A DNA stretch of 64,000 bases, taken from positions 124,001 through 188,000 of the forward strand of contig NZ_JAUZEE010000001.1 in assembly GCF_030705305.1 (NCBI RefSeq). Reading direction: 5' to 3'. Under the pieces are notes generated by a model. It was given only the letters and a program-made list of their open reading frames with translations, did no database searches and was not told the DNA's origin. This document shows, in pieces, positions 1 through 18,768 of the stretch (positions are counted from its first letter, which is position 1; each line of letters starts with the position of its first letter). The position numbers were made by a program, and so were the translations under genes. The DNA is from Leptothrix discophora (lineage in GTDB: Bacteria; Pseudomonadota; Gammaproteobacteria; Burkholderiales; Burkholderiaceae_C).

Positions 1-1
1 A

Positions 2-196
2 CTCGGCTTCGAGATGCGGGCCGGTGCCAACCGCGTGCGCATGAACGACATCGTCGACGGCCAGTTCTGCGGTGCTTGCCACAACAACGTGGTGGCCTGG
101 GGCCCCGACCGCTGCGACCTCTGCCACTCGGGCCTGAAGGGCCTTTCCAGCGGCATCCAGGGCGGCGCGCAGACTTCGGGGCCCGGGAGATGGTGA
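2..196 (+). CDS. C-terminal end of a multihaem cytochrome c (partial, cut by left edge)
   Basis: Only the last 64 or so codons are in the window; the frame is open to the left edge, so the start is outside. Two CXXCH haem-binding motifs are visible (CGACH and CDLCH), spaced as in class III / c7-type multihaem cytochromes. The stop codon TGA (194-196) overlaps the ATG of the next gene by one base, suggesting translational coupling within the cytochrome cluster that continues to CcsA. The role is presumably periplasmic or outer-membrane electron transfer. How many haems the full protein carries cannot be told from here. Confidence 0.75.
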   Translation, partial: LGFEMRAGANRVRMNDIVDGQFCGACHNNVVAWGPDRCDLCHSGLKGLSSGIQGGAQTSGPGRW

Positions 197-1329
197 TGAC
201 GACGCTGCAAGGCCCCGCACGACCCGCGCCGATCGGCCGCCGCGCCCTGCTGGCCGCACTGGCCGCACTGGCCGATCTGACCGCACTGGCCGATCTGGCC
301 GCACTCACCGCCGGCCTCGCGGCGGCGGGCTGTTCCGGCCCGCCGACCCGTCCCGACGACGCGCTGCCGCCGGCCGCGCCGGGACCGGCCGTGGTGCGGC
401 ACTGGCGCACGGTCAGCAGCGGGCAGGTCGGCGTGCCGGGCGGTCCGGCCGGGCTGCCGACCTTGCCGGGCGGGGCGGGCCTGCCCGGCCTGCCCGCACT
501 GCCCGCACTGCCCGCACCGCCCGCACCGCCCGCACCGCCCGCACCGTTGGGCGGCGCGCCGGTCCGGCTGGTCGGCCCGGTCGCGCTGGCGCTGCGCGCG
601 GGCGAGCTGCTGGTGGCCGATGCCGGGCTGGGGCGGCTGGTGCGCATCCCGCCCGACCTGCCGACCTGGACCGTGCTGCCGCCCATCGCCGGGCTGGCGA
701 TCTCGCCGCGCACCGTGCTGGCGCTGGGGCCGGACCGCACGCTGTGGGCGCTCGACGGCCCGGGCCGGCAGCTGCTCAACCTGGGCCTGGGCGGCCAGCT
801 GTTGCGGCGCGTGTCGCTGTCGGCCTGGGCTTCGCCATCCGGCTTCGCGCTGGCGGGCCTCGGCCTGCGCATCGTCGTGGCCGACGACAGCACCGGCCGC
901 TGGGCCGAGCTGCGTGGCGCGAGCCTGGCCGAGCCGATGAACGATGCCTCGACAGGGGACGCCGCCGATGCCATCGCGGCCAGCGCTGACCGTGTCTACC
1001 TGCTGGAGCGTCGCCGTGCCCGCATCCGCGTCGTCGACCTGGTCGACGGCCGTGCGCACGGCACGCTGGGCGAGGGCGAGCTGATGCAGCCGGTGGCGAT
1101 CGCCGCCGATGCGCGTGGCCGCGTCGCGGTGATCGACGCGCAGGACCGCAGCGTGCGGCTCTACGTGCCGGGCCAGCCGGCGCTGCACCTGCTGCCGGCC
1201 GAGCTGCGGGTGCAGCAGCCCGCCGCGCTGGCGATGGACGATGGCTGGCTGGCGGTGGCCGACCGGGTCGGCGGCGTGGTGCAGCTGTTCCGCATCGGCG
1301 AAGGCCGTGCCGCCGGGGGCGCGCGGTGA
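196..1329 (+). CDS. NHL/beta-propeller-like lipoprotein of the cytochrome cluster
   Basis: 377 residues from ATG 196, chosen because GGGAG at 185-189 lies six bases upstream and the start overlaps the preceding stop; ATG 190 and frames further upstream lack this support. The N-terminus has a basic stretch, a long Ala/Leu hydrophobic segment made of short repeats (about residues 17-41) and a lipobox ending AAGC, so Cys46 is the predicted lipidation site. A Pro/Gly/Ala/Leu linker follows, with repeated CTGCCCGCA/CCGCCCGCA units near 480-545. The rest has repeated short blades of the V-A-D-x-G type expected of NHL-like propellers. Probable role: periplasmic or outer-membrane partner of the neighbouring cytochromes (inference). 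Confidence 0.65.
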   Translation: MTTLQGPARPAPIGRRALLAALAALADLTALADLAALTAGLAAAGCSGPPTRPDDALPPAAPGPAVVRHWRTVSSGQVGVPGGPAGLPTLPGGAGLPGLPALPALPAPPAPPAPPAPLGGAPVRLVGPVALALRAGELLVADAGLGRLVRIPPDLPTWTVLPPIAGLAISPRTVLALGPDRTLWALDGPGRQLLNLGLGGQLLRRVSLSAWASPSGFALAGLGLRIVVADDSTGRWAELRGASLAEPMNDASTGDAADAIAASADRVYLLERRRARIRVVDLVDGRAHGTLGEGELMQPVAIAADARGRVAVIDAQDRSVRLYVPGQPALHLLPAELRVQQPAALAMDDGWLAVADRVGGVVQLFRIGEGRAAGGAR

Positions 1330-2480
1330 ATCGCTCACGGCATGCGGTGAGCGCCGCCTGGATCAGCCTGCTGGCCTGCTGGCTGGCGCTCCAGCTGACC
1401 GGCTGCGCCAGCGAGCCCGTGCGCGGCACCTGGCGTCCGGACATGGACGGCCTGCCCGGTCCGGACGAGGCCGCCGCGCTGGTCTGGCCGGCCCGGCCGG
1501 AGCCGGCACGTTATGCCTGGGCCGGGCGCCTGACCGGCGAGCCCGAGCTGCACCGGCCCGAGCCGGCCGGCGGTGCCAGCCTGTGGCGGCGGGTCGGCCG
1601 CTGGATCGCCGGGCTGGACGGCGCCGACGAGGCGCCGCTGCAGTTGCAGCGGCCGAGCGCTGTCAGCGGCGATGCACACGGCCGCATCTACGTCAGCGAC
1701 GCGGCGCGGCGTGCCGTCTTCGTCTTCGACCTGGCCGGCGGCACGCTGGCGCTGTGGGAGCGGGCCGGGCCGGGCCTGAACTGGGTCTCGCCGGTGGGGC
1801 TGGCGCCTGGACCGGACGGCACGCTGGACGTGGCCGATGCCGAGCTGGGCTGGGTCGTCCGCCTGGATGCGCGGGGCGAGCCGCGCGGCCAGATCGGCCG
1901 CGGCTTGCTTCAGCGCCCGACCGGGCTGGCGCGTGACCCCGCCAGCGGCCGGCTCTACGTCGCCGACACGCGGGCCCACGACATCAAGGTCTTCGATGCG
2001 GCCGGCCGGCTCGAACGCACGCTGGGCGGGCCGGGCAGCGCGCCGGGCCGCTTCAACGCGCCGACCCACCTGGCGCTCGCCGACGGCCTGCTCTACGTCA
2101 CCGACAGCCTGAACGCCCGCGTGCAGGTGCTGCGCGCGGCCGACGGCGCGCCGCTGCGCCAGATCGGCTCGCGCGGCCTGGTGCTGGGCCAGCTGGTGCG
2201 GCCCAAGGGCCTCGCGGTCGACGGGGCCGGGCGCATCCACGTGGTCGAGTCCTATCACGACACCGTGCTGGTCTACGACGACCAAGGCCGGTTGCTGCTG
2301 CCGATCGGTCCGGCCTCGGCCTCGATGCCGCCGGTGGCCCGCTTCCTGCTGCCCGCGGGCATCTGGGTGGCACCCGACGGCGACGTGTGGGTCGCCGACA
2401 TGTTCAACGCCCGGCTGGCGCGGCTGCGTCCGGTCGGCCACGGGGCGTCGCCCGACGACGCCGGAGCGACGAGCCGATGA
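1326..2480 (+). CDS. NHL-repeat beta-propeller lipoprotein
   Basis: 384 residues from a GTG start at 1326 that overlaps the end of the previous gene by four bases. It has a signal peptide with lipobox LTGC (Cys27), then several NHL-type blades recognisable by repeats such as RLYVADTRAHDIKVFD, LLYVTDSLNARVQVL, RIHVVESYHDTVLVYD and DVWVADMFNARLARL. NHL propellers are protein-interaction scaffolds and are commonly encoded beside multihaem cytochromes in metal-reducing bacteria; that link is family knowledge, and the function here is inferred. It overlaps the next cytochrome gene by ATGA. Confidence 0.8.
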   Translation: MNRSRHAVSAAWISLLACWLALQLTGCASEPVRGTWRPDMDGLPGPDEAAALVWPARPEPARYAWAGRLTGEPELHRPEPAGGASLWRRVGRWIAGLDGADEAPLQLQRPSAVSGDAHGRIYVSDAARRAVFVFDLAGGTLALWERAGPGLNWVSPVGLAPGPDGTLDVADAELGWVVRLDARGEPRGQIGRGLLQRPTGLARDPASGRLYVADTRAHDIKVFDAAGRLERTLGGPGSAPGRFNAPTHLALADGLLYVTDSLNARVQVLRAADGAPLRQIGSRGLVLGQLVRPKGLAVDGAGRIHVVESYHDTVLVYDDQGRLLLPIGPASASMPPVARFLLPAGIWVAPDGDVWVADMFNARLARLRPVGHGASPDDAGATSR

Positions 2481-5083
2481 AGGCCCTCGATGTGCTGACC
2501 TCGCGCCGCGCCTGGCCGCTGCTGGCGAGCCTGGCCGTGGCGCTGCTGCTGGCGCTGGCCTGGGCCGAGCCGATCCGGGCGCAGCGCGTCTCGGACATCC
2601 GCGGCACCCGCCACAACCTGTCGGTGGACGGCCCCGGCACGACCCATGCGGCGGTGGGCGGCACCGACCAGGTCTGCGTCTTCTGCCACACCCCGCACGG
2701 CGCCAGCCAGACCGACGAGGGCGGCACCGCGCTGCGCGCCCCGCTGTGGAACCGGCGCGTGCCGGCCGGCACGACCTACACGCCCTACGGCTCCGAATCG
2801 CTCGACGCGCAGGCCATCGTCGACGGCTTCAGCGGCCTGCCCGGTGGCAGCAGCAAGCTGTGCCTGTCCTGCCACGACGGCACGCTGGCGCTGGGCAACG
2901 TCAACGTGCTGAACGGCCTGGCCGGGGCCTCGATCCCGATGACCGGCACTGGCCCGGGCGGCACCATGCCGGTCGGCGAAGGCACGGCCAGCGGCTTCAC
3001 CCGCAACCTCGGCACCGACCTGCGCAACGACCACCCGATCTCGCTGACCTTCGACAGCGCGCTGGCCCAGCGCGACGGCGAGCTGCGCGGCGTCGACGCC
3101 GCGCAGCGCTGGCCGGCCGGCAGCGGCACGGTCGTCGGCGTGCGGGCGCCCGGCTACAAGCCGCTGGTGCCGCTGCAAGCCACCGGCGTCAACGGTGCCG
3201 GCCAGGTCCAGTGCGCCACCTGCCACGACCCGCACATCCGCGAGCTCGATGCCAGCAAGGGCAACCAGAAGTTCCTGCGCGCCCAGCGCTTCCAGGAGGC
3301 CGCGCCCTCGGCCGCGCACAGCCCCGCCACCGACATCATCTGCCTGAGCTGCCACGACAAGAACCTGGCCTCGGGCAGCTGGGCGTACTCGGCCCATGCC
3401 CGGCCGGACGTCGCCGACGAGACCTACCGCGATGCCGCCGCCGCGCTGCGCGAGTTCCCGGCCGGCCTGCCGGTCTGGAAGGCCGGCTGCCTGAACTGCC
3501 ACGACACCCACACGGTGCCCGGCGCGCGCCGCCTGACCCGCGAGGGCACCGATGCGCCGCGCCCGGCCGCCAACCCGCTGGCCGCGCGCCAGGGCGGCAA
3601 CCCGGCGCTGGAGGAAACCTGCTACCCCTGCCACACCAGCGCCGCCCGCTCGGTGCTGACCAGCAACCTCCAGGTGCCCGACATCGAGACCGACTTCGCC
3701 TCGGCCGTGCGCATGCCCATCACCAGCGCCGACCAGGGCAACACGCCCGACGAGGTCCACGACATCGGCGGGCGCTTCACCGATCCGGGCGTCGACTGCA
3801 GCGGCCCGTCCAACCGCTGTGGCGCGGACTTCATCGAGTCGCGCGCCCGGCTGGCCCGCCGCCATGCCGAATGCACCGACTGCCACAACCCGCACCGCGT
3901 CATCAAGGCGCGCCAGTTCACCGGCGGCGCGGGCGGACTGGCCGGCCCGGCCGATGCGGCCGGCACCCACCGGCATGACGAGGCGCCCGGCTACACCCAC
4001 ACCCACATCGCCTCCGGCGTGCTGCGCGGCGCCTGGGGCGTCGAGCCCGTCTATGGCTCGACCAGCTTCCAGCAGCTGCCCAGCGGCTACACCGTCAAGC
4101 GTGGCGATCCGGGCAACAGCATCGACACCGCAGCCACCGCCGCCCACGTGACGCGGGAATACCAGGTCTGCCTGAAGTGCCACTCGGACCACGGCTATCC
4201 CGACAACAACGCCTACCCGCTGGGCAGCCGGCCGGCGCTGGGCCACACCGGCGGAACCTCGCCGGGCACCAACAACCTGACGGTCTACACCAACCAGGCC
4301 AAGGAGTTCCAGGCACCGATCACCCACAAGGGCGACACCACCTCGGCCAACTCCGGCGCGGGCAGCAACTTCGCCACCAACAACCACCGGTCCTGGCATC
4401 CGGTGATGGACGGCACCGGCCGCAGCGGCGTCGGCGCCAACGCCTTTCGCGCACCCTGGGGCAATGCCATCGGCACGCAGACCATGTATTGCAGCGACTG
4501 CCACGGCAGCAGCACGGCGGCCACCACCGTCGTGCCCAACGGCGGCGAGAACGGCTCGGCCTGGGGGCCGCATGGCTCGGCCAACCCCTTCCTGCTCAAG
4601 GGTGCGTGGAACACCAACGTCGGCAGCGGCGGCGCGGCCAATGCGCTGTGCTTCAAGTGCCACAACGAGGCGACCTATGCCAGTGCCAACGGCGGCGGCA
4701 CCACGGGTTTCTCCAACGGCAACGACGGCAACCTGCATGCCTTCCACACCGACAAGATCGGCCGCATCCGCTGCAACTGGTGCCACACCGCGGTGCCGCA
4801 CGGCTGGAAGAACAAGGCCTTCCTGGTCAACCTCAACGACGTCGGCCCCGAGGCCGGCCGCGCCGGCAACGAGGAGTGGCGCGAGAACGCGCCCGCACAG
4901 GCCTACAACCAGGAGCCGTACTACCTCAATGCCAAGCTCAAGGTGCGCACCTTCGCGACCAGCGGCAACTGGACCGACACCAACTGCGGCTCGGCCGCAT
5001 CGGCCACCACCTTCGGCACCATCGGCAACAGCGCGCTGTCCGGTCGTGACTGGATGAAGGACGTCTGCAGCAACCCGCCATGA
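2477..5083 (+). CDS. Undecahaem (11 CXXCH) exported cytochrome c
   Basis: 868 residues. The start ATG 2477 overlaps the upstream TGA and is followed by a clear Sec signal peptide (hydrophobic core about residues 14-30, Ala-Gln after). Eleven CXXCH motifs can be counted, the first at residues 67-71 (CVFCH) and the last near 766-770 (CNWCH), with CLSCH, CATCH, CLNCH, CYPCH, CTDCH, CLKCH, CSDCH and CFKCH between. Many are followed by a further His (HTPH, HDPH, HDTH, HNPH), typical of bis-His c3/doubled-CXXCH cytochromes. No transmembrane helix follows the signal, so it is periplasmic or secreted. Probable role: long-range electron transfer with the adjacent propeller lipoproteins. Confidence 0.88.
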   Translation: MKALDVLTSRRAWPLLASLAVALLLALAWAEPIRAQRVSDIRGTRHNLSVDGPGTTHAAVGGTDQVCVFCHTPHGASQTDEGGTALRAPLWNRRVPAGTTYTPYGSESLDAQAIVDGFSGLPGGSSKLCLSCHDGTLALGNVNVLNGLAGASIPMTGTGPGGTMPVGEGTASGFTRNLGTDLRNDHPISLTFDSALAQRDGELRGVDAAQRWPAGSGTVVGVRAPGYKPLVPLQATGVNGAGQVQCATCHDPHIRELDASKGNQKFLRAQRFQEAAPSAAHSPATDIICLSCHDKNLASGSWAYSAHARPDVADETYRDAAAALREFPAGLPVWKAGCLNCHDTHTVPGARRLTREGTDAPRPAANPLAARQGGNPALEETCYPCHTSAARSVLTSNLQVPDIETDFASAVRMPITSADQGNTPDEVHDIGGRFTDPGVDCSGPSNRCGADFIESRARLARRHAECTDCHNPHRVIKARQFTGGAGGLAGPADAAGTHRHDEAPGYTHTHIASGVLRGAWGVEPVYGSTSFQQLPSGYTVKRGDPGNSIDTAATAAHVTREYQVCLKCHSDHGYPDNNAYPLGSRPALGHTGGTSPGTNNLTVYTNQAKEFQAPITHKGDTTSANSGAGSNFATNNHRSWHPVMDGTGRSGVGANAFRAPWGNAIGTQTMYCSDCHGSSTAATTVVPNGGENGSAWGPHGSANPFLLKGAWNTNVGSGGAANALCFKCHNEATYASANGGGTTGFSNGNDGNLHAFHTDKIGRIRCNWCHTAVPHGWKNKAFLVNLNDVGPEAGRAGNEEWRENAPAQAYNQEPYYLNAKLKVRTFATSGNWTDTNCGSAASATTFGTIGNSALSGRDWMKDVCSNPP

Positions 5084-6147
5084 CGCCGCACCCCACGACG
5101 CCTCGCCCGCCGCCCGCCTGGCTGGCCCACTTCGGCTCTCTGCGCACCGCGCTGGCGGGCATGGCGCTGCTGGCGGTCGCGGTGCTGGTCGGGCGATTCC
5201 GCAGCGAGTGGCTGGGCGTCGGCCTGATCGGTGCGCTGCTGTTCCTGGCGCTGAACCTGCTGGTGGCGCTGTGGGCCCATCCGGCGCTGCGGCGGCAGGT
5301 GCCGCTGCTGGTCTTCCACCTCGCGCTGCTGGGGCTGGTCGTGGCCTCAGGTCTGGGACGCATGACGGCGCTGGACGGCCGCTTCGAGCTGACCGAGGGC
5401 GTGCCCTGGGACGGCACGCTGATGGACGGCGTGGCCGGCCGTTGGCATCCGGACCGGCTGGCGCAGCTGAGCTTCATGCACAGCGGCTTCGAGATCCGCT
5501 ACGCGCCCGGCCTCAAGCGCGGCCCGACCCGCAACCGCGTCCACTGGACCGATGCCGACGGCCGGCCGCAGGACGAGGTGATCGGCGACCACCACCCGCT
5601 GGTGCTGCGCGGCTACCGCATCTACACCAGCCCGAACAAGGGCTACGCACCGCTGATGCGCTGGACGCCCACCGGTGGCGAGGCGGCGGTCGGCGCGCTG
5701 CACCTGCCGAGCTTCCCGGCCCAGGCGCTGCGCCAGTCGCTCGACTGGCAGCTGCCGGGCGGCCCGAAGCTGTGGCTGCAGCTGCCGGTCGACCCGGCGC
5801 TGATCGACCCCGATGCGGCCGGCCGCTTCCGCCTGCCCGATGACCGCACGCTGGTGCTGCGGCTGGGCGGCAGGGAGGTTGAGGGCGAGGGCGAACAGCG
5901 CCTGACCCTCGCGCCGGGCGCCTCGGTCGACCTGCCGGGCGGCCGGCTGGACTACCTGGAACTGCGCACCTGGATGGGCTATCGCGTCAGCTACGACCTG
6001 AGCCTGGGCTGGCTGCTGGGCCTGGCGCTGCTGGCGACCGGATCGCTGGGCTGGCACTACGCGAGGCAGTTCTGGGCCGCCTCGCCGAGGCCGGCTGGCG
6101 CTCCGCTGGCCTCGACACCCGGGTCCGCTGCGATGGAGGCACGGTGA
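5080..6147 (+). CDS. resB: ResB/Ccs1-like cytochrome c biogenesis membrane protein
   Basis: 355 residues, starting at an ATGA overlap with the multihaem cytochrome. Three hydrophobic helices lie in the first 95 residues, a large periplasmic domain follows, and a last helix lies near residues 308-330: the ResB/Ccs1 topology. It is shorter than the usual 450-700 residue Ccs1 but within the range of ResB partners encoded next to multihaem cytochromes. With CcsA it forms the system II haem lyase that attaches haem to CXXCH apocytochromes in the periplasm. Placement directly after the cytochromes suggests a dedicated maturation pair. Confidence 0.82.
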   Translation: MTPHPTTPRPPPAWLAHFGSLRTALAGMALLAVAVLVGRFRSEWLGVGLIGALLFLALNLLVALWAHPALRRQVPLLVFHLALLGLVVASGLGRMTALDGRFELTEGVPWDGTLMDGVAGRWHPDRLAQLSFMHSGFEIRYAPGLKRGPTRNRVHWTDADGRPQDEVIGDHHPLVLRGYRIYTSPNKGYAPLMRWTPTGGEAAVGALHLPSFPAQALRQSLDWQLPGGPKLWLQLPVDPALIDPDAAGRFRLPDDRTLVLRLGGREVEGEGEQRLTLAPGASVDLPGGRLDYLELRTWMGYRVSYDLSLGWLLGLALLATGSLGWHYARQFWAASPRPAGAPLASTPGSAAMEAR

Positions 6148-7019
6148 ACGAGGCCGTCATCGCCACGATGCCCGACCAGCCCTGGCTGCATGCGGCACTG
6201 CTGCTGTACGCCGCCTCGGCGCTGCCGGCCTTCTGGGCCGTGCTGGCGAGGCGTCGCGCGGGTGGCTCGGCGCATGAGCCTGCGACGAGATCGTCGGCCT
6301 GGCCGAAGACGGTGCTGCTGCTGGCTGCGCTGGCCGTCACGCTGCACACGGTCTCGCTGGGGCTGCGCTGGGCGACGCTGGGGCATGGGCCGTTCACGAC
6401 CATGCACGAGATCCTCAGCAGCAACCTCTGGAGCCTGGCGCTGGTCTATGGCGTGTCGGCCGCCGCCATCCCGGTGCTGCGCCGGCTGTGGCTGGCGGTG
6501 CTGCCGGTGCTGGCGGTGCTGGCCGGCTGGATGCTGCTGGCCGATGCCCGACCCGGCCACCTGCCACCGACCTACGAGACCGTGCTGCTCTACCTGCACA
6601 CGCTGGTCGGCAAGCTGTTCCTGGGCCTGCTGCTGACGGCGCTGGCCTGGTCGGCGGTGCCGCTGCTGCGGACCTCGGCGGCCGGCCGGCGCTGGACCGC
6701 CGCGCTGCCCGAGGACCGCCGCTGCGACGCGATGGCGCACCGCTACGCCGCCTTCGCCTTCGTCTTCGAGGGCGCGATGCTGACCGTCGGCGCGGTCTGG
6801 GCCCAGGACGCCTGGGGCCGCTACTGGGGCTGGGATCCGCTGGAGACCTGGGCCTTCCTGACCTGGCTGTCGCTGGCCGCGACGCTGCATGCGCGCATCA
6901 CCTTCGGTCCGTCCCCGGTGCGCTTCGGGCTGTGCCTGGTCGGCGTCTTCGTGCTGGCGTTCCTGACCTTCTTCGGCGTGCCTTTCGTGTCGACGAGCCC
7001 GCACCAGGGGGCGATCTGA
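6144..7019 (+). CDS. ccsA: CcsA/ResC-type cytochrome c assembly protein (haem handling)
   Basis: 291 residues from GTG 6144, overlapping resB by four bases. It is polytopic with about eight hydrophobic segments and carries the WWD-type haem-binding signature (WGRYWGWDPLETW, about residues 223-235), followed by conserved His-containing helices. It is the membrane partner of ResB in system II and presents haem for thioether bond formation. It ends the cluster: the next 120 bases are AT-richer and contain the promoter for the following gene. Confidence 0.88.
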   Translation: MNEAVIATMPDQPWLHAALLLYAASALPAFWAVLARRRAGGSAHEPATRSSAWPKTVLLLAALAVTLHTVSLGLRWATLGHGPFTTMHEILSSNLWSLALVYGVSAAAIPVLRRLWLAVLPVLAVLAGWMLLADARPGHLPPTYETVLLYLHTLVGKLFLGLLLTALAWSAVPLLRTSAAGRRWTAALPEDRRCDAMAHRYAAFAFVFEGAMLTVGAVWAQDAWGRYWGWDPLETWAFLTWLSLAATLHARITFGPSPVRFGLCLVGVFVLAFLTFFGVPFVSTSPHQGAI

Positions 7020-7142: not shown

Positions 7143-8531
7143 ATGCGACCGCGCGATCCCGTCCCGCGTGAACGGCTGCTCGCCGCGCTGCGTCGCCTGG
7201 GGCCTTGCAGCCCGGTGGCGCTGCAGCAGGCGTTGGACGTGCCGCGCAGCACGCTGCTGCGCCTGCTCGACGAACAGGCCGGCGCGCTGTTGGCCGCCGG
7301 TGCCGGGCGGCGGCGGCGCGTGGCCGCCCGGCGTGGCTTGCGCGGCGACGTGGCCGGCATCCCCGTCCACCGGGTCGACGCAGCCGGGCAGGTGCAGTCG
7401 GCCGGCACGCTGCACCTGCTGGAGCCGGACGGCTGCTGGTGGCCGCTCGATGCCGGCGTCTGGCCGCTGCCGGACGCCGCGCGCGACGGCTGGTGGACCG
7501 GCCTGCCGCTGCCCATCCAGGACCTGCGGCTGCAGGGCTACATGGGGCGGCAGTTCGCGCGTCGACACCACGTCCTGCGGGGCCTGCCGGCCGATCCGCG
7601 CGACTGGCGCGACGAGGACCACCTGTGGGCGCTGGCCCAGGCCGGGCAGGACCTGCCCGGCGACCTGATCCTGGGCGAGGCGGCGCTGTCGGGCTGGCTC
7701 GCCTCGGCGGGCGATGCGTCGACGCCACCGATCGACGGTGACGAGCCCGGCCCTGCCTATGCCCGCCTGGCCGAGGCCGCGGTTGCCACCGGCATCGCCG
7801 GGTCGAGTGCGGCCGGCGAGTTCCCGAAGTTCACCGCCCGGCGCCGGCTGGCCGGGGCGGCGACGCCGGAGGTGATCGTCAAGTTCTCCGGTGCCGACGA
7901 CGCACCGGCCGTGCGCCGCTGGGCCGACCTGCTGCGCTGCGAGCACCATGCCCTGCGCACGCTGGCCGAGCGATCCGACCTGCCGGTGTCGCGCTCGCGC
8001 GTGCGGGTCCATGGCGGGCGGACCTTCCTGGAAAGCGAGCGCTTTGACCGCATCGGCGAACGCGGCCGCAGCCCGGTCGTCAGCCTGGCCAGCCTGGACA
8101 GCGAGGCGCTCGGCCTGGCGACCAGCCACTGGCCGGCGCTGGCCCAGGCCCTCGTCCGGCTGGGCTGGTTGACCTCGGACGATGCCCGCCGCGTGACCCG
8201 CCTGCACCTCTACGGCCGCCTGATCGCCAACAGCGACATGCACACCGGCAACCTGGCTTTCCAGCCCGAGGGCGGCCGGCTGCGGCTGGCGCCGGTCTAC
8301 GACATGCTGCCGATGCGCCTGGCGCCGCTGGCCGGTGGCGAGGTGCCGCCGCTGGCCGCACCCGAACTCGCCTTGCCGCGCCCGGACGAGCGCGAGGACT
8401 GGGCCGAGGCGGCGCGCTGGGCGCTGTCCTTCTGGCAGACCGTTGCCGACGACGCCCTGCTGGGCGGGCCGCTGCGCGCCTTCGGCGAGGCCCAGGCCCG
8501 GCTGCTGCGCACGCGCATCGATCCGGCCTGA
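7143..8531 (+). CDS. yjjJ: HipA-family Ser/Thr kinase, YjjJ/HipH type, without antitoxin
   Basis: 462 residues. The N-terminal 60 residues look like a winged-helix DNA-binding domain, which distinguishes the YjjJ group from classical HipA. The C-terminal half is HipA-like, with the catalytic loop NSDMHTGN (residues 363-370: Asp365, His367, Asn370) and a downstream YDMLP motif that supplies the metal-binding Asp. Family members phosphorylate translation-related targets and can be toxic. No hipB-like antitoxin gene lies beside it; the built-in DNA-binding domain may serve that role (inference). The ATG at 7143 has no visible Shine-Dalgarno, so the start is moderately certain. Confidence 0.8.
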   Translation: MRPRDPVPRERLLAALRRLGPCSPVALQQALDVPRSTLLRLLDEQAGALLAAGAGRRRRVAARRGLRGDVAGIPVHRVDAAGQVQSAGTLHLLEPDGCWWPLDAGVWPLPDAARDGWWTGLPLPIQDLRLQGYMGRQFARRHHVLRGLPADPRDWRDEDHLWALAQAGQDLPGDLILGEAALSGWLASAGDASTPPIDGDEPGPAYARLAEAAVATGIAGSSAAGEFPKFTARRRLAGAATPEVIVKFSGADDAPAVRRWADLLRCEHHALRTLAERSDLPVSRSRVRVHGGRTFLESERFDRIGERGRSPVVSLASLDSEALGLATSHWPALAQALVRLGWLTSDDARRVTRLHLYGRLIANSDMHTGNLAFQPEGGRLRLAPVYDMLPMRLAPLAGGEVPPLAAPELALPRPDEREDWAEAARWALSFWQTVADDALLGGPLRAFGEAQARLLRTRIDPA

Positions 8532-8624: not shown

Positions 8625-9173
8625 TCAGCGTCCCTGGAGGTAGAGCCCCGCATCGGCGTGGCCCTGTTCGGCGGCCTTGCGGATCCAGCGTTCGGCTTCC
8701 TTCGGGTCCTGGACCACGCCGGTGCCGGTCAGGAACAGGATGCCCAGGCTGTACTGCGCGTTGGCATGGCCCTGGCGCGCCGCCTCGAAGTACCACTGCG
8801 CGGCCAGCCGGGCCGGGTCGCGGTCGTTGCCTGGATCGGCCAGGCCGTAGGCGTACATGTTGCCGAGGTGGTATTGCGCCTCGGCCAGGCCCTGGCGGGC
8901 GGCGCGCTCGAACCAGGTCAGCGCGGTGTCGTTGTTCTCGGCCACGCCGTGGCCGTGGTAGTACAGCTCGCCCAGCCGCAGCTGCGCGACCGCCTGGCCT
9001 TGGCGGGCCATCGGCTCCAGCACCTTGACGGCGGTGGCGTAGTCCTTGCGGCGGATGGCTGCCTGGCCGTCTTCCAGCGCATCGGCCCGCACGGGCAGGG
9101 CGGTCGTCAACAGGCATGACAACATCACGCCCGCAAGCGTTGCGCGTACCACGGACCGAACGACAGACGTCAT
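8625..9173 (-). CDS. Exported Sel1-repeat (TPR-like) protein
   Basis: 182 residues from ATG 9173. A Sec signal peptide (about residues 1-29, ending PVRA) is followed by four Sel1-like repeats with the usual A..G...AQ..LG..Y pattern (for example AVAQLRLGELYYHGHGV, AEAQYHLGNMYAYGL, ANAQYSLGILFLTGTGV). Sel1 repeats are alpha/alpha protein-binding modules, often in periplasmic signalling or envelope proteins. The partner is unknown. Its start codon shares two bases with that of the divergent histidine kinase, so expression of the two may be mutually dependent. Confidence 0.8.
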   Translation of the reverse strand: MTSVVRSVVRATLAGVMLSCLLTTALPVRADALEDGQAAIRRKDYATAVKVLEPMARQGQAVAQLRLGELYYHGHGVAENNDTALTWFERAARQGLAEAQYHLGNMYAYGLADPGNDRDPARLAAQWYFEAARQGHANAQYSLGILFLTGTGVVQDPKEAERWIRKAAEQGHADAGLYLQGR

Positions 9174-10686
9174 GACAGGGCTCCCCGAATCGTCACCAGC
9201 CGTTGCAAGCGGTGTACCCGGCCGGCCGCGCGGGCAATCGCTGCGGGCCCAGGCCGCCTGGGCCTTGCTGGCGCTGCTGGCCTGCCTGGCCGGGTCGGCG
9301 CTGTTCGTGTCGGTCGAGCGCTCGCAGCTGGATGCGCAGCTGCAGGGCCTGCAGTCGGTCAGCCGGCATGAGCGCACGCTGGCGCTGGCGCTGGCCGCCG
9401 TCGAGACGGCCCGGCTCGATGCCAGCGAGGACCTGTCGCAGGTTCATCCCTTGAGCCCGGCCGAGGCCGCCGCGCTGCAGGGCCGCGCACGGGACGCACC
9501 GCCGGACCTGGACGTCTACATCGAGAACTGCGAGCGCCTGTTCGAGGACCTCAAGCCCTGGGACGCCGGCTATCCGCTGCTCTACCGCGCGGTCGAGCAG
9601 CACTGGCAGGTGCTGCGCACGGCGCCAACCGAAGGCGCGTGGCAGGCCTTGCGCGCCGCGCTGGCCGAGCTGAAGGCCGACCTGACGCGTCGCCATGACC
9701 GGCTGGTCGAGCAGCGCGAGGCGCAGGCCCAGGTCTACCAGCGCCAGTTCGATGCGGTCACGACCGAGACCGGCCTGCTGGCCGCCGCCGGGCTGCTGCT
9801 GCTGGGCGTGCCGATGCTGCTCTACGCCGGCCGGCTGGCGCGTGACATCGGCCGGCTCGAATCGCATGCCCGCGGCCTCGTGGGCGGTCAGCGCGGCGAG
9901 CCGCTGCGGGTGACGCGGCGCGACGAGGTCGGCGCGCTGATGGCGTCGGTCAACCAGCTGGCGGCCGACCTGGCCGCGCGCGAGCAGGCGCTGGCACTGG
10001 ACCGCGAACGCCGCGCCCACGACGACAAGATGCATGCGCTGGCCGCGCTGGCCAGCGGCATGGCGCACGAGATCAACAACCCGCTGGCGGTGATCGGCGG
10101 GCTGGCCGAGCAGCTGGTCGACGAGCCGGTCGCCGACCCGGCCGCCGTGGCCGCCGTGGCCGCCGCGGCCCGCGAGATCGTCGCCCAGACCCGCCGCGCC
10201 GCCATCGCCGCGCAGCGCCTGGCCGAGGCCGCCACGCCGCTGCCGGGCGACCTGCGCTGGCTCGACCTGGCCGAGCTGATGGGCCAGGCGGTGCGGCTGG
10301 CCGGCCACGACCGGCGGCTGCGCCAGCTGCGCTTCGAGGTCACGGCCGACCCGGCGCTGCCGGCGCTGCACCTGAGCGCGGCCCGGCTCCAGCAGGTGCT
10401 GATGCAGCTGCTGCAGGCGGCCGGCGAGGCGCTGGCGTCGCGGCCCGAGGCGGTGCGCGAGCCGCTGCGGATCGCGCTCGCGCCGGCCACCGACGACCCG
10501 TCCCAGGTCCTGCTGCGCCTGCCGCTGCCGGGCGTGACCGGGGCGCCCGCACTCGACACCTGCGCGGCGCTGGCCGCAACACTTGGTGGAACTCTTGCGT
10601 TTGCTCAAGATGACGCCTGGGTTTCGTGCATTACGCTGCGGCTTCCCGTCGATGGCGTCGTGCCTGAAGGCGCCCCCGCTGAGTGA
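9172..10686 (+). CDS. Membrane histidine kinase with degenerate ATPase domain
   Basis: 504 residues from ATG 9172. TM1 lies at about 29-48, a periplasmic sensor of about 150 residues follows, TM2 is at 201-222, then HAMP and a dimerisation/phosphoacceptor helix with MAHEINNP (His299). The catalytic domain is short and lacks recognisable G1 (DxGxG) and G2 (GxGLGL) boxes. The N-box position reads QVLMQLLQAAGEAL, with Gln and Ala where Asn is expected. The domain may not bind ATP, making this a kinase-dead sensor or phosphatase (inference). The sigma54 regulator gene starts 15 bases downstream. The start is uncertain because there is no good Shine-Dalgarno. Confidence 0.75.
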   Translation: MTGLPESSPAVASGVPGRPRGQSLRAQAAWALLALLACLAGSALFVSVERSQLDAQLQGLQSVSRHERTLALALAAVETARLDASEDLSQVHPLSPAEAAALQGRARDAPPDLDVYIENCERLFEDLKPWDAGYPLLYRAVEQHWQVLRTAPTEGAWQALRAALAELKADLTRRHDRLVEQREAQAQVYQRQFDAVTTETGLLAAAGLLLLGVPMLLYAGRLARDIGRLESHARGLVGGQRGEPLRVTRRDEVGALMASVNQLAADLAAREQALALDRERRAHDDKMHALAALASGMAHEINNPLAVIGGLAEQLVDEPVADPAAVAAVAAAAREIVAQTRRAAIAAQRLAEAATPLPGDLRWLDLAELMGQAVRLAGHDRRLRQLRFEVTADPALPALHLSAARLQQVLMQLLQAAGEALASRPEAVREPLRIALAPATDDPSQVLLRLPLPGVTGAPALDTCAALAATLGGTLAFAQDDAWVSCITLRLPVDGVVPEGAPAE

Positions 10687-10701
10687 TCCAGGAGTGTGTC
10701 C

Positions 10702-12207
<1,506 letters not shown>

Positions 12208-12219
12208 CCCGCAGCCCGC

Positions 12220-12235
12220 TGGCACGGGATTCGCA
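12220..12235 (+). promoter_or_regulatory. Sigma54 (-24/-12) promoter
   Basis: TGGCACGGGATTCGCA matches the consensus TGGCACG-N4-TTGCA with one mismatch. The invariant GG and GC are exactly 10 bases apart, giving a predicted transcription start near 12245. It sits 12 bases after the sigma54-activator gene and directly upstream of the cytochrome/propeller operon. Confidence 0.75.
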
Positions 12236-12271
12236 CGTCGGCGCCGGATGCCTGCGAACCTGTTGAACCCC

Positions 12272-12583
12272 ATGACCCGCCGTGCCGCGCTGGCCGGGGC
12301 GCTGTCGCTGGCCTGCGCGGTGACGGCGCAGGCGGCCGACCCGTCCAACGGCGGCGCGATCTACCAGCGCCTGTGCGCCCAGTGCCACGGCATGCGCGGC
12401 CAGCCGGTGCTGCCGGTGGCGCCCGACTTCAGCTCGCCGACCGCGCTGATGAAGGCCGATCCGGCGCTGCTGGCGGTGATCCGCGACGGCCGGGGCGCGA
12501 TGCCGGCCTACCAGGGCCAGCTCCGGGAGCGCGAGATGCTCGACCTCGTCGCCCACCTGCGCACGCTGCGGGGTCGGCGATGA
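12272..12583 (+). CDS. Small exported monohaem cytochrome c
   Basis: 103 residues from ATG 12272, which gives a compact signal peptide (MTRRAALAG..., cleavage after AQA). ATG 12248 is in frame upstream but would lie only about three bases from the predicted sigma54 transcript start. One CAQCH motif binds haem, and a late Met in GAMPAYQGQL is the likely sixth ligand: the class I cytochrome c pattern with a C-terminal helix. It is periplasmic and a likely electron donor or acceptor or redox input for the operon. Its stop overlaps the next ATG (ATGA). Confidence 0.85.
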   Translation: MTRRAALAGALSLACAVTAQAADPSNGGAIYQRLCAQCHGMRGQPVLPVAPDFSSPTALMKADPALLAVIRDGRGAMPAYQGQLREREMLDLVAHLRTLRGRR

Positions 12584-13680
12584 CCGGCCTGAGCCGACGC
12601 GCGCTGCTGGGCACGCTGCCGCTGCTCGGCTGGCCGGCCAGTGCACGGGCGGCCGAGCCGCCGAAGCTGCGCGTGCAGGACACCTTCGAGGTCGGACCTG
12701 CGGTCTACGTGCGCTCGCTGGCGGTCGAGCCGGCGCGTGGCGCGGTCTGGGTCGGCACCTCGGCGGGCGTGCACGAGGTCGACCTGAAGGACGGCCGGCG
12801 CCGCCAGACCTTCACCCGCGCCGAGGGCCTGGCCAACGAATACGTCTTCGCCATCGGCATCACCCGCGACGGCAACAAGTGGTTCGGCACCAACGCCGGC
12901 GGCGTCTCGCGCTGGCGCGACGGCCGCTGGAAGACCTTCTTCCCGATGCACGGCCTGGCCGACTACTGGGTCTACTGCTTCGCCCAGCAGCGCAACGGCG
13001 ACCTGTGGATCGGCACCTGGGCCGGCGCCAGCCGGGTCGACGGACGGACCGGCGCGTTCACGACCTACCTGAAGGAACTCGTCAACGAATGGGTCTACGG
13101 CCTGGCCGTGGACGCGCAGGACCGCGTCTGGTTCGGCACCGAGGGCGGCGTGTCGATGTTCGACGGCCAGCGCTGGCGGTCCTGGACCCATGCCGACGGC
13201 CTGGGCGCGGCCAACGACGAGTGCCTGCCGTTCTCCGACAACACCGGCCTGGGCACACGCCGCCGGCACGACCTGACGATCTCGGCCGGCACCCAGGCGA
13301 CCTACAACCCGAACTATGTCTTCGCGATGCTGGCCGCCGCCGACGGCTCGATCTGGGCCGGCACCTGGGGCGGCGGCGCGTCGCGCTGGGATGGCCAGTC
13401 CTGGCGCTCGGTCAGCCGCCGCGACGGCCTGGCCGGCAACATCGTCTACGCACTGGCGCAGGCCGGCGACGGCGCGCTGTGGTTCGGCACCGACCAGGGC
13501 CTGTGCCGCTGGCAGCCGGGTCCGGACGGGTTCCAGGCTGGCTTCCCGGGCGGTGGCACCTGGCAGACCTTCGGCGTCGCCGACGGACTGCCCGACCGCC
13601 ACGTCTACGCCATCGCCGTGGCGCCGGACCAGCGCGTCTGGGCCGGCACGCGCGGCGGTGTCGTGAGGGTCGGGCCATGA
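12580..13680 (+). CDS. Exported two-component-regulator propeller (Reg_prop) protein 1
   Basis: 366 residues. The signal has a twin-arginine-like SRRALLG followed by a hydrophobic stretch (about residues 5-24, ending ARA). The body is built of Reg_prop blades recognised by repeated NGDLWIGTWAG, DRVWFGTEGGVSMFDGQRW, GSIWAGTWGGGASRWDGQSW and GALWFGTDQGLCRW motifs. Such propellers are normally fused to kinases as periplasmic sensor domains; here the domain is free-standing. Inferred role: periplasmic ligand or protein sensor acting with the adjacent cytochrome. It overlaps both neighbours by ATGA. Confidence 0.85.
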   Translation: MTGLSRRALLGTLPLLGWPASARAAEPPKLRVQDTFEVGPAVYVRSLAVEPARGAVWVGTSAGVHEVDLKDGRRRQTFTRAEGLANEYVFAIGITRDGNKWFGTNAGGVSRWRDGRWKTFFPMHGLADYWVYCFAQQRNGDLWIGTWAGASRVDGRTGAFTTYLKELVNEWVYGLAVDAQDRVWFGTEGGVSMFDGQRWRSWTHADGLGAANDECLPFSDNTGLGTRRRHDLTISAGTQATYNPNYVFAMLAAADGSIWAGTWGGGASRWDGQSWRSVSRRDGLAGNIVYALAQAGDGALWFGTDQGLCRWQPGPDGFQAGFPGGGTWQTFGVADGLPDRHVYAIAVAPDQRVWAGTRGGVVRVGP

Positions 13681-14873
13681 CGAAGCCGGCCTCCTTCGAC
13701 CGCCGCCGCGCACTCGGTGCGCTCGGTGCGCTGTGCCTGGCACCGTCGATGTCGGTGGGGCAGGCGGCGGTGCAAGCCGCTTCCATCGCCGCGCCGGCCA
13801 GGCTCGCCGTGCGCCACTTCAACCACTTCCGCGTCGGCAACAAGAACGTCAAGCGGCTCTTCCTCGACGGCGAGGTGCTGTGGGCCGGGACCTCCGGCGG
13901 CGCGGTCCGGCATGACCCGCGCGACGGCTCGGTGCGGCTGTACGACACGACGTCCGGCCTGCTGTCCAACGGCATCTTCCACGTCGGCCGCATCGACCTG
14001 GGCAGCGGCGGCAGCCGCATCGCGCTGGGCACCTACGGCGGCGGCCTGGCCCTGCTGATGGACGAGCTGGAGAAGCCGCCGCGCTGGCGCACCTACAACG
14101 TGCCCGAGGGCCTGGGCGATGCCTTCGTCTACGACTTCCTGCAGACCCGAGACGGTGACCTGTGGATCGCCACCTGGTCGGGCATCAACCGCATCCGCGC
14201 CAGCCGGCTGGACGACCGCCAGGCCTGGGGCCTGCACACCGTCGACAGCACCGCCGGCGGCCTGCCCAACGACTGGGTCTACGGCCTGGCCGAGGGCCCG
14301 GACGGCACGCTCTGGCTGGCCACCGAAGGCGGCCTGGCCGCCTGGCGCGACAACCACTGGCAGCACTGGCGCCATGCCGACGGCCTGGGTGCGCCCTACG
14401 AGCAGGTGCGCGGCTCGCTGACGTCCAGCATCGACCCGGCCAGCCTCTCGCAGCACCACGCCCGCCAGAAGGCCGAGATGGGCCTGAGCGAGGTGCGCGA
14501 GGCCTACAACCCGAACTACGTCGTCTCGCTGGCGGTCGACCGCGCCGGCGTGGTCTGGGCCGGCACCTGGGGCGCCGGGCTGTCGCGCTACGACGGCCAG
14601 CGCTGGCGCCACTACACGGTCGCCGACGGCCTGCCCGGCAACCACGTCTTCATGCTGCAGCTCGACCCGTTCGGGCTGCTGTGGGTCGGCACCGACCAGG
14701 GCCTGGCGCGCATGGTGGCCAGCGGGGCCGAAGGCGACGCCCGTTTCGACGTGCTGACCACGCACGATGGGCTCTACGGCAACGCCGTCTTCTCGATGGC
14801 CACCGGGCCGGACGGCAGCCGCTGGGTCGGCAGCTACGGTGGCGTCGCCCGGCTGCAGTTGCAGACCGGCTAG
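13677..14873 (+). CDS. Exported Reg_prop beta-propeller protein 2
   Basis: 398 residues, a paralogue of the preceding gene (same YNPNYV...AGTWGAG...YDGQRW blade sequences). The N-terminus, DRRRALGALGAL, is a possible Tat signal; mature protein probably begins near residue 35. Blades include GDLWIATWSGINRI, GTLWLATEGGLAAW, VVWAGTWGAGLSRY, LLWVGTDQGLARM and SRWVGSYGGVARL. No transmembrane helix or kinase domain follows. The tandem pair suggests a heterodimeric sensor or substrate-specific duplicates. The hybrid kinase begins 14 bases downstream. Confidence 0.85.
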   Translation: MTKPASFDRRRALGALGALCLAPSMSVGQAAVQAASIAAPARLAVRHFNHFRVGNKNVKRLFLDGEVLWAGTSGGAVRHDPRDGSVRLYDTTSGLLSNGIFHVGRIDLGSGGSRIALGTYGGGLALLMDELEKPPRWRTYNVPEGLGDAFVYDFLQTRDGDLWIATWSGINRIRASRLDDRQAWGLHTVDSTAGGLPNDWVYGLAEGPDGTLWLATEGGLAAWRDNHWQHWRHADGLGAPYEQVRGSLTSSIDPASLSQHHARQKAEMGLSEVREAYNPNYVVSLAVDRAGVVWAGTWGAGLSRYDGQRWRHYTVADGLPGNHVFMLQLDPFGLLWVGTDQGLARMVASGAEGDARFDVLTTHDGLYGNAVFSMATGPDGSRWVGSYGGVARLQLQTG

Positions 14874-14887
14874 GCTGGAGGCCACGC

Positions 14888-17523
<2,636 letters not shown>

Positions 17524-17527
<4 letters not shown>

Positions 17528-18642
17528 CGCGTGTGACGGGCAGGCCGTCGATCCGGCCCGCGCGACGGCGGCTGGTCGGGGCGCTGTTGCTGTCGCCGCT
17601 GCATGGGCTTGCCTGCGGGCCGCTGCCGGGCGGGGCCTGGGCAGGCGACCGGTCCGACGCAGCGCCCGTGACGCTGCGGCGCGAACGCCGCGCGCTGTTC
17701 GGCGGCCGGGCCGAGCTGATCGTGCCCGGTTCAGCTGCGGCCAGCCCCGCAGCGGACCGGGCGCTCGCGCAGGCCTGGGCGCAACTGGCCCGGCTGGACC
17801 GCGAATGGAACGCCTGGAAGCCCGGCGCGCTGCACCGCGTCAACACCGCCCTGGCGGCGGGTCGACGCGTGTCGGTGGACGACGACCTGGCCCGCCTGCT
17901 GCGCCAGGCCCGCGACATCGAGCAGGCCAGCGCGGGCGCCTGCAACGTCGCGATCGGCGCGGCCGTCGCGGCCTGGGGCTTCCATGCCGACCGGCTGCGC
18001 GAGGGCGCGGCCGCGCCGGCCGAGGCCGCGCTGCAGCGGCTGCGCGAGCCGGTGCCGACGCTGGCGTCGCTGCACTGGCAAGGCGGTAGGTTGGGCGGGA
18101 TGTTGGGCGGCACCGACCGCCGGGTCCGGATCGACCTCGGCGCGATCGGCAAGGGCCATGCGGCCGATCTCGCGCTGCACACGCTGCGGGCGGCCGGCAT
18201 CGGCTCGGCGCTGGTCGACCTGGGCGGCAACCTGGCGGCGATGTGCGGGCCGGACGGCGCGGGCGGGCGGCCCTGGCGCATCGGCATCCGGCATCCCGAT
18301 CCGGCCGGCGGCGTGGTGGCGGCCGTCGAGCTGGGCGAACGCGAGGCGGTCATCACCTCGGCCCAGTCCGAACGGCGCCGTCGCCTGAGTGATGGCCGCG
18401 AGGTCGGCCACGTGCTGGACGCCCGCACGCTGCTGCCGGTGTCGTCGGCGGCGGGCGTGACGGTGCTGGCGCGCGACGCGACCTGGGCCGACGCGATGGC
18501 GACCGCGCTGCTGGCGGCCGATCCGGCCGAGCCGTGGCCGACCGTGACCGCCCGCCTGGGCGTGGCGCAGGCGCTGCGGGTGCAACCGGACGGCCGCATC
18601 GAGTCGACGCCGGCCCTGGCCGCGCGGCTGCGGCCCGCCTGA
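17524..18642 (+). CDS. apbE: ApbE-family FAD:protein FMN transferase
   Basis: 372 residues. Signal-like N-terminus, then ApbE signatures: DLGAIGKGHAAD (about 203-214), a GG-N motif, GHVLDARTLLPV and the metal-binding ATWADAMATALL. ApbE transfers FMN to Ser/Thr of extracytoplasmic flavoproteins such as NqrB/C, RnfD/G and FMN-binding-domain proteins. No such acceptor gene is in the window, so the substrate is unknown. Co-transcription with a cytochrome c and propellers (four-base overlap with the hybrid kinase) implies that the operon builds an extracytoplasmic redox module. Confidence 0.85.
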
Positions 18643-18768
18643 GACGCTCGAACGCGAAAAGCGCGCATTCGCCGGGCAGGCGTCACGGCGCGGGGCCGGG
18701 CGTGAACGGCGGGGCTCAGGCCGGGCGGGTGGGGGCCGAAACAGCGGCATCCCCCCAGGAGTGCCGCC

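What the first reader, a model, noticed from the sequence alone, without database searches (positions are those of the whole stretch)
2..7019. Multihaem cytochrome, NHL lipoproteins and a dedicated Ccs pair: candidate electron conduit
An exported 11-haem cytochrome, at least one more multihaem protein, two propeller lipoproteins and a ResB/CcsA pair are joined by start/stop overlaps. Similar groupings occur in extracellular electron transfer loci of metal-reducing or iron-oxidising bacteria. A private haem-ligation system suggests a high demand or unusual apocytochromes. The left end is outside the window, so a porin or further cytochromes may follow there.
Basis: partly seen in the sequence, partly recalled or inferred. 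Interest (0 to 1): 0.65.

Follow-up and report, generated by a model that had tools for sequence, protein, structure and literature searches.

The report
Uet-type electron conduit with own haem-attachment pair
The stretch is the right-hand end of a large conserved gene cluster (the published 'Uet' type) that probably carries electrons across the bacterial outer membrane, and it brings along its own small haem-attachment machinery; the type is already known, but its maturation, wire and switch now look testable.

Summary
Read to the left, the genes at 2-7019 are the 3' end of a 17-kb run (contig C11:113836-131019): an NHL lipoprotein, a tetrahaem cytochrome homologous to PDB 7tfs (OmcE, by recall), a parvulin PPIase, an outer-membrane barrel (28 strands in a homologue's AlphaFold model), four trihaem proteins, two helical proteins, two more NHL lipoproteins, an undecahaem cytochrome, a short ResB and CcsA. 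Content and order match the published Uet (undecaheme electron transfer) cluster of Ca. Tenderia, already reported in Gallionella and mobilis-type Leptothrix. The conduit reading is supported and the predicted porin exists; the kind is known. Added here: ResB follows the undecahaem gene in 16 of 17 near-complete named loci with room; it is the only ResB-family gene in this genome, which has CcmF elsewhere; the undecahaem protein begins with an OmcE-like tetrahaem head; sigma-54-type sites precede the tetrahaem gene in 6 of 17 loci (shuffle mean 0.19; four of the six are where I first saw them); a kinase and NtrC-type regulator follow in all four same-family loci. Direction of flow and filament formation are inferred.

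The parts
1..196 (+). 3' end of trihaem c7-type cytochrome K (full gene C11:123822-124196); likely periplasmic carrier
   Evidence: TIGR04257 65.1 bits, cut-off 40; 3 CXXCH in 21 of 21 homologous frames
190..1329 (+). NHL-repeat lipoprotein L (UetH position)
   Evidence: PF01436 22.8 bits; 27% identity to M over 219 aa; lipobox by eye. Poorly conserved: an L match upstream in 8 of 22 loci
1326..2480 (+). NHL-repeat lipoprotein M (UetI position)
   Evidence: PF01436 72 bits; upstream of the 11-haem gene in 20 of 22 loci with at least 9.5 kb upstream
2477..5083 (+). undecahaem cytochrome N (UetJ): OmcE-like tetrahaem head (residues 33-295) plus seven further haems
   Evidence: 11 CXXCH in 31 of 31 rows of A5, a selection, and in 37 of 41 frames in all; 7tfs E 6.8e-26; tetrahaem protein D E 5.5e-24
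5080..6147 (+). short ResB (CcsB) of cytochrome c maturation System II, 355 aa
   Evidence: PF05140 27.3 bits; His80 invariant in 11; only ResB-family match in the genome
6144..7019 (+). CcsA, haem-handling subunit of System II, with WWD motif
   Evidence: PF01578 71.3 bits; TIGR03144 108.7 bits, below its cut-off 187.6; His152, 249, 287 and WGRYWxWDP invariant in 11
9172..10686 (+). sensor histidine kinase T, linked regulatory block
   Evidence: PF00512 and PF00672, both just over cut-off; same order downstream of Uet in L139, L140, L141
10696..12207 (+). NtrC-family sigma-54 activator U
   Evidence: PF00158 229.5 bits, PF00072 106.5 bits; 75-89% identical homologue downstream of Uet in 3 of 3 other same-family loci
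12248..12583 (+). monohaem cytochrome c V, linked block
   Evidence: PF13442 46.8 bits; V-W-W2 stand beside Uet on the other flank in L151 and L152; not listed in L139-L141, where the overlap filter of the script could hide it
12580..13680 (+). exported propeller W (two-component-regulator type)
   Evidence: PF07494 97.1 bits
13677..14873 (+). exported propeller W2
   Evidence: PF07494 78.5 bits
14888..17527 (+). hybrid sensor kinase X (PAS-HisKA-HATPase-REC-Hpt)
   Evidence: Pfam; found in L139, L140, L141
17524..18642 (+). ApbE-family FMN transferase Y
   Evidence: PF02424 187.5 bits; found in L139 and L141, not in L140
18769..19185 (+). small exported protein Y2, right end of the linked block
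   Evidence: found in L139, L140, L141; no Pfam match at E 0.05

Best explanation
This is a Uet-type electron conduit. Shown by sequence: an outer-membrane barrel, an OmcE-like exported tetrahaem protein, four trihaem c7-type proteins, an undecahaem protein whose N-terminal third is itself OmcE-like, three NHL lipoproteins, a parvulin chaperone and a short ResB-CcsA pair, kept in one order across the proteobacterial loci examined. Inferred mechanism: the trihaem proteins carry electrons through the periplasm between inner-membrane carriers and the barrel; the barrel houses the crossing; the undecahaem and tetrahaem proteins act outside, the tetrahaem one possibly as an OmcE-like filament that the undecahaem protein's OmcE-like head caps or roots; NHL propellers and the PPIase help placement and folding. 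The ResB-CcsA pair attaches haem to the cluster's own cytochromes beside System I. Direction is more likely inward (electrons taken from Fe, Mn or another solid donor), given the probable Leptothrix host, the absence of a NapC/NirT-type quinol dehydrogenase in this genome and the divergent class-I cytochromes. In this family the cluster is probably under an NtrC/sigma-54 switch encoded next door. Likelihoods: Uet conduit about 0.9; Ccs pair dedicated 0.7; inward flow 0.6; filament 0.4.
For: Gene content and overlaps. D to 7tfs E 1.1e-18 and to 9yuq (16 chains) E 2.4e-24 (that 7tfs is OmcE is recall). In 17 aligned D exactly eight His are invariant, four in CXXCH and four others. Barrel: homologue in L077 modelled at pLDDT 89.4 with 28 long strands (my count of the listing); among many barrels the Mtr-complex chain 6r2q_B (MtrB by recall) aligns 445 residues, Z 14.4, rmsd 8.8, rank 19. 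Trihaem protein F matches multi-c7 structures, best E 6.8e-37. Synteny: of 22 loci with at least 9.5 kb upstream, barrel, PPIase, F, G and J in 19 each, D in 18, K in 17. ResB in 16 of 17 and CcsA in 15 of 17 loci with at least 6 of 8 core genes and at least 3.9 kb downstream (my tally). These loci come from the 40 closest of 80 returned by a capped search. Own genome: one CcmF/NrfE-family match at 750.8 bits, one ResB-family match, no PF03264 match. Sigma-54-type sites before D: 6 of 17, shuffle mean 0.19, 0 of 300 shuffles reach 6, opposite strand 0. Uet description and Tenderia expression from passages.
Against: No experiment here. Direct comparison with the Tenderia proteins was not possible. 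The short ResB matches only about 126 of 486 profile positions, so its activity is uncertain. One complete Uet locus with room (L087) has neither ResB nor CcsA, and L063 has ResB but no detected CcsA. In G080 and G329 a second, longer ResB lies within about 3 kb of the Uet pair. PF03264 proteins occur in 8 of 13 Uet genomes, two of them partial, and undecahaem cytochromes are reported in a Mn reducer (PMC13264449 passage); both leave outward flow open. N passes the Pfam domain PF22113 of MtrC/MtrF-like cytochromes (38 bits, cut-off 30), so some Mtr-type kinship is not excluded. Four of the six sigma-54 hits are the loci in which I first noticed the sites; among the other 13 windows only 2 hit, against about 0.3 expected from the 2.1% control. 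The undecahaem model was poor (pLDDT 52.4); nothing is claimed from it.
Confidence: 0.85

Rival explanations
1. Same conduit, but run outward: electrons from the quinone pool are sent to Mn(III/IV), Fe(III) or humics as a respiratory outlet.
For: Undecahaem cytochromes are reported in a Mn-reducing Dechloromonas (passage); the cluster occurs in Rhodocyclaceae and Dechloromonas records; 8 of 13 Uet genomes have a PF03264 match.
Against: Own genome has no PF03264 match; passages on Tenderia (cathode) and on Gallionella and Leptothrix (metal oxidisers) favour uptake.
Confidence: 0.3
2. The ResB-CcsA pair is simply the host's general cytochrome c maturation system that happens to lie here.
For: ResB is common in the order: PF05140 over cut-off in 137 of 300 genomes, Uet-type short ones included.
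Against: Own genome has a CcmF/NrfE-family protein at 750.8 bits; this ResB is a short form, unlike the full-length ones that mostly score about 400-500 bits; ResB follows the undecahaem gene in 16 of 17 near-complete loci with room.
Confidence: 0.1
3. The tetrahaem protein is a monomeric surface electron carrier, not a filament subunit.
For: Only homology to 7tfs and 9yuq, no filament data; the Uet passage seen here calls UetA an extracellular tetraheme cytochrome.
Against: All four haem motifs and four further His align with 7tfs; the other PDB match is deposited with 16 chains.
Confidence: 0.5

Closest known systems
Uet (undecaheme electron transfer) cluster of Ca. Tenderia electrophaga and Gallionella (PMC5371394, PMC10734462; passages read)
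   Same: UetA tetrahaem, UetB PPIase, UetC barrel, UetDEG trihaem, a TPR-type gene among the trihaem genes, UetHI NHL, UetJ undecahaem; the order agrees with the gene letters and with the Tenderia locus tags given in PMC5371394. UetJ with a porin is also reported for Leptothrix Group 2 (PMC13386937 passages)
   Different: More than the named Uet genes: a fourth trihaem protein, a second helical protein (H, found in 5 of 22 named loci), an NHL gene ahead of the tetrahaem gene, a ResB-CcsA tail and a linked regulatory block. Whether the defining paper (Eddie 2022, not held) lists these is unknown to me
OmcE extracellular cytochrome filament, Geobacter sulfurreducens (PDB 7tfs, name by recall)
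   Same: Tetrahaem protein with all four haem motifs and four further His aligned
   Different: Longer; polymerisation untested; a related module also heads the undecahaem protein
Cytochrome c maturation System II (ResB/CcsA)
   Same: Adjacent ResB and CcsA, WWD motif, His positions that I recall as haem ligands
   Different: Short ResB; a CcmF/NrfE-family protein is also present in the genome; CcsA below the TIGR03144 cut-off
MtrCAB/MtoAB and PCC3 porin-cytochrome conduits
   Same: Barrel plus cytochromes on both sides (inferred here); mtr clusters can also sit beside maturation genes, there System I ccmA-I (PMC8805035 passage)
   Different: Cluster proteins fall far below the decahaem MtrA/MtrC-type models, although N passes the Pfam domain PF22113

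Membership tests
Uet cluster | Undecahaem cytochrome (UetJ) | tested here: met
   11 CXXCH
Uet cluster | Exported tetrahaem cytochrome (UetA) | tested here: met
   C11:115276-116268, 4 CXXCH, hydrophobic N-terminal segment; start codon uncertain; extracellular place not tested
Uet cluster | Peptidyl-prolyl isomerase (UetB) | tested here: met
   C11:116280-117404, PF00639 57.2 bits
Uet cluster | Outer-membrane beta-barrel (UetC) | tested here: met
   No Pfam match over cut-off for the own protein, which was not modelled; homologue in L077 (26% identity) modelled as a barrel
Uet cluster | Three trihaem cytochromes (UetDEG) | tested here: met
   Four TIGR04257 proteins at 61.5-65.1 bits, cut-off 40
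Uet cluster | TPR-type protein among the trihaem genes (UetF) | tested here: inconclusive
   H and I are in the right place; only sub-threshold TPR matches for I, none for H
Uet cluster | Two NHL proteins (UetHI) | tested here: met
   L and M; L barely over cut-off
Uet cluster | Sequence identity to the Tenderia proteins | not testable with these tools
   No Tenderia record among the 80 loci returned by the capped search; defining paper not held
OmcE-type filament | Homologous tetrahaem chain with four haem sites and four further His | tested here: met
   E 1.1e-18 to 7tfs; 8 invariant His in 17; ligand roles inferred
OmcE-type filament | Polymerises into extracellular filaments | not testable with these tools
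   needs microscopy
System II maturation | CcsA with WWD motif and conserved His | tested here: met
System II maturation | Full-length ResB | tested here: not met
   355 aa; profile positions 154-281 of 486 only
Mtr/Mto conduit | MtrA or MtrC type decahaem protein in the cluster | tested here: not met
   TIGR03508 at most 38.7 bits against 192.2, TIGR03507 at most 16.1 against 209.3 (ten proteins); but N passes PF22113, 38 bits against 30

The most novel reading that the evidence does not exclude
The cluster is a self-contained, sigma-54-switched 31-kb electron-uptake island that carries a minimal System II (short ResB plus CcsA) dedicated to its own cytochromes, and whose surface wire is an OmcE-type tetrahaem filament rooted or capped by the undecahaem protein through its OmcE-like head.
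Probability: 0.22. Interest if true: 0.7.

Novelty: new member of a known kind. Interest (0 to 1): 0.45.

Why it matters
From what I could read, Uet is a predicted electron conduit of metal oxidisers without a genetic test. If the host is a Leptothrix, as the evidence suggests, three questions become testable in a culturable group: does a short ResB-CcsA pair mature only the conduit's cytochromes in a cell that also has System I; does UetA make OmcE-like filaments in an aerobic metal oxidiser; and does an NtrC/sigma-54 switch respond to the extracellular donor.

Tried and rejected
AlphaFold model of the undecahaem protein: pLDDT 52.4, discarded, not searched. Idea that the Ccs pair serves unusual haem motifs: no support; N of the window has only CXXCH, 2 of 31 N rows have one possible CX3-5CH, and in D, F, G, J and K only CXXCH was counted, longer variants were not. 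Idea that small protein Y2 is an ApbE target because of an SGAT stretch: rejected, not kept in its three homologues. Idea that Uet hosts are enriched for System I in the order: not supported; 8 of 11 Uet genomes in the sample are over the CcmF/NrfE cut-off against 177 of 300 overall. Sigma-54 sites by count alone: not above chance (7 against 4.43 in L002; 4 against 13.31 in the window). Only position conservation stood out. With 10 or more of 12 matches, B had 4 of 9, C 3 of 11 and D 6 of 17 windows, against 2.1% of 6000 random windows; only D got the shuffle test, and the cut was chosen after seeing the first sites. I dropped L061, L062 and L069 there as the same genomes as L052, L048 and L045 (contig lengths agree). 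The six D hits include close relatives (L002/L042, L043/L053). In L053 the plus-strand site of the B-C gap stands ahead of an extra cytochrome gene, not directly before C. G235 has trihaem arrays but no Uet in the stretch read. A5 uses the window's protein plus 30 of the 41 N frames found; over all 41 the CXXCH count is 11 in 37, 10 in 3 and 9 in 1. The barrel searches list many unrelated barrels above the Mtr-complex chain, so kinship with MtrB is not claimed. U-like hits at 27-34% in L063, L068, L075 and L092 were ignored as general NtrC similarity.
Full report
OBSERVATION. The window is contig C11:124001-188000 of a 4.65-Mb, 31-contig genome. The left part was fetched and read.

ANATOMY (C11 coordinates; subtract 124000 for window). 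Divergent, minus strand: A 111842-112888 (3 CXXCH) and B 112885-113730 (2 CXXCH), class-I cytochromes with PF13442 domains. Plus strand: C 113836-114990 NHL-type lipoprotein (34% identity to M over 335 aa; not scanned against a family library); D 115276-116268 tetrahaem; PPIase 116280-117404; E 117439-119631 barrel; F 119682-120146 trihaem; G 120157-121299 monohaem plus trihaem; H 121296-122216 and I 122213-123193 helical paralogues (28% identity); J 123202-123825 and K 123822-124196 trihaem; L and M NHL; N undecahaem; O ResB; P CcsA. Gene starts are my choice; the conserved part of D begins later, so its start may lie downstream of 115276.

WHAT THE PARTS ARE. D matches 7tfs (OmcE by recall; the tool names it only 'Cytochrome c') at E 1.1e-18 and 9yuq at E 2.4e-24, with the haem motifs aligned; 17 aligned D have exactly eight invariant His, four in CXXCH and four others. 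N matches the same two chains through its first 250 residues, and D itself over residues 33-295 at 33% identity, E 5.5e-24: an OmcE-like head followed by seven more haems. F, G, J and K pass TIGR04257; F matches solved multi-c7 proteins (3ov0, 3oue; Geobacter by recall). The barrel homologue in L077 folds with 28 long strands at pLDDT 89.4; the own E protein lies outside the window and was not modelled. N also passes PF22113, an MtrC/MtrF-like domain, at 38 bits.

THE CCS PAIR. ResB here is short (355 aa) and matches PF05140 over positions 154-281 of 486; a profile of 11 finds one solved protein named CcsA at E 3.4e-4. His80 of ResB and His152, 249 and 287 plus the WWD segment of CcsA are invariant in 11; that these correspond to the haem-ligand His of CcsBA is recall. 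Among the 40 closest named undecahaem loci (L057-L096, of 80 returned by a capped search), 17 have at least 6 of 8 core genes and at least 3.9 kb downstream: ResB in 16, CcsA in 15 (my tally). The 12 loci with no core gene detected had no ResB directly behind, though several of those contigs are short on one or both sides, and in L085 the pair lies upstream. In 13 Uet genomes, 10 have a CcmF/NrfE-family protein over the cut-off, one has it in two pieces (G205), one only fragments (G250), one none (G080); 10 have no full-length ResB, while G080, G180 and G329 do, in G080 and G329 with a longer ResB within about 3 kb of the Uet pair. In the window's genus the contrast is complete: 10 of 10 Uet-less genomes carry the long ResB (two in pieces or partial) and 3 of 3 Uet genomes lack it; 5 of those 10 Uet-less genomes also have a CcmF/NrfE-size match. 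The three Uet genomes may be one lineage, and across the order System I is not clearly enriched, so I record a lineage-level difference, not a rule. The own genome has a further PF01578 protein at C1:95911-96666 without ResB.

DISTRIBUTION. TIGR04257 passes its cut-off in 12 of 300 genomes of the order; 11 of these are Uet loci by synteny and one (G235) is not in the stretch read. Uet occurs in 3 of the 13 genomes of the genus examined. Named loci with the core include Rhodocyclaceae, Dechloromonas, Sulfuritalea, Burkholderiales, Chromatiales and other gammaproteobacteria, Magnetococcales and a Kiloniellaceae MAG; many are MAGs. Host: G009's single contig of 4,909,403 bases agrees with my memory of Leptothrix cholodnii SP-6, and UetJ is reported in mobilis-type Leptothrix (Group 2) while Sphaerotilus is said to have very few multihaem proteins (PMC13386937 passages). 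The host is therefore probably a Leptothrix, by inference.

REGULATION AND FLANKS. A block T (kinase), U (NtrC-type), W, W2 (propellers), X (hybrid kinase) and Y2 follows Uet in G007, G009 and G298 as here, with ApbE in G007 and G298. V-W-W2 stand on the other flank in G183 and G288. The block was not found in the stretches fetched behind Uet of G046, G167, G250 and G288; behind Uet of G183 only a 32% kinase match to X appeared. In named loci U-like proteins at 54-61% occur downstream in L057, L060, L077 and L088. Sigma-54-type sites precede D in 6 of 17 windows (0 of 300 shuffles reach 6), and one site points each way in the B-C gap of the four same-family loci. Four of the six D hits are the loci in which I first saw the site; of the other 13 windows 2 hit, against 2.1% in random windows. 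G007 shares the left neighbours Z, Z1 and Z0 with the window genome, G009 does not within the stretch read, which suggests the unit has moved.

LITERATURE. Seen as passages only: PMC10734462 (Uet naming; six Gallionella), PMC5371394 (Tenderia trihaem genes among its most highly expressed, TPR gene beside them, undecahaem gene), PMC13386937 (UetJ plus porin in Leptothrix Group 2), PMC13264449, PMC5566968 (PCC3), PMC8805035 (mtr clusters beside ccmA-I) and PMC12246660; other papers only as search listings. Eddie 2022, Baquero 2023 and the DOI I recalled for Szeinbaum 2020 are not held and were not read. I saw no link of Uet to ResB/CcsA, OmcE or sigma-54 in the listings or in the passages above, but the defining paper may contain it.

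VERDICT. In content and order a member of a known but, as far as I could read, genetically untested conduit type, with additions on maturation, filament kinship and control. On checking, I lowered the probability of the boldest reading from 0.25 to 0.22, because part of the sigma-54 evidence is the set in which it was discovered and a further PF01578 protein exists in the genome.

Noticed in passing
window 7143-8531: A HipA_C-domain protein (PF07804) sits between CcsA and the regulatory block in this genome; no match to it in the stretches read of the three other same-family Uet loci, so it looks like a later insertion.
   Followed up: partly
window 9172-19185: Kinase, NtrC-type regulator, cytochrome, two propellers, hybrid kinase, ApbE and a small exported protein form a block that keeps company with Uet in the family; why an FMN transferase is there is unexplained.
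   Followed up: partly
C11:117439-119631 and homologues in L044-L095: The barrel is poorly conserved outside the family (about 22-36% identity) while trihaem proteins F, J and K beside it mostly keep about 52-84%.
   Followed up: no
G000 to G012 (genus of the window): Cytochrome c maturation differs within one genus: long ResB in the 10 Uet-less genomes (5 of them also with a CcmF/NrfE-size match), CcmF/NrfE and no long ResB in the 3 Uet genomes.
   Followed up: partly
L064, L066, L070, L083: Undecahaem genes in Polaromonas, Aromatoleum and Azoarcus records stand without detected Uet core genes; in L066 and L083 a second copy about 6 kb on is followed by ResB.
   Followed up: no
G080:C97:2210-3724 and G329:C43:21573-23078: A second, longer ResB lies within about 3 kb of the short Uet ResB-CcsA pair.
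   Followed up: no
C11:105377-108280: Large protein left of the cluster that by eye resembles a formate dehydrogenase alpha subunit (not tested); 96% identical neighbour in G007.
   Followed up: no
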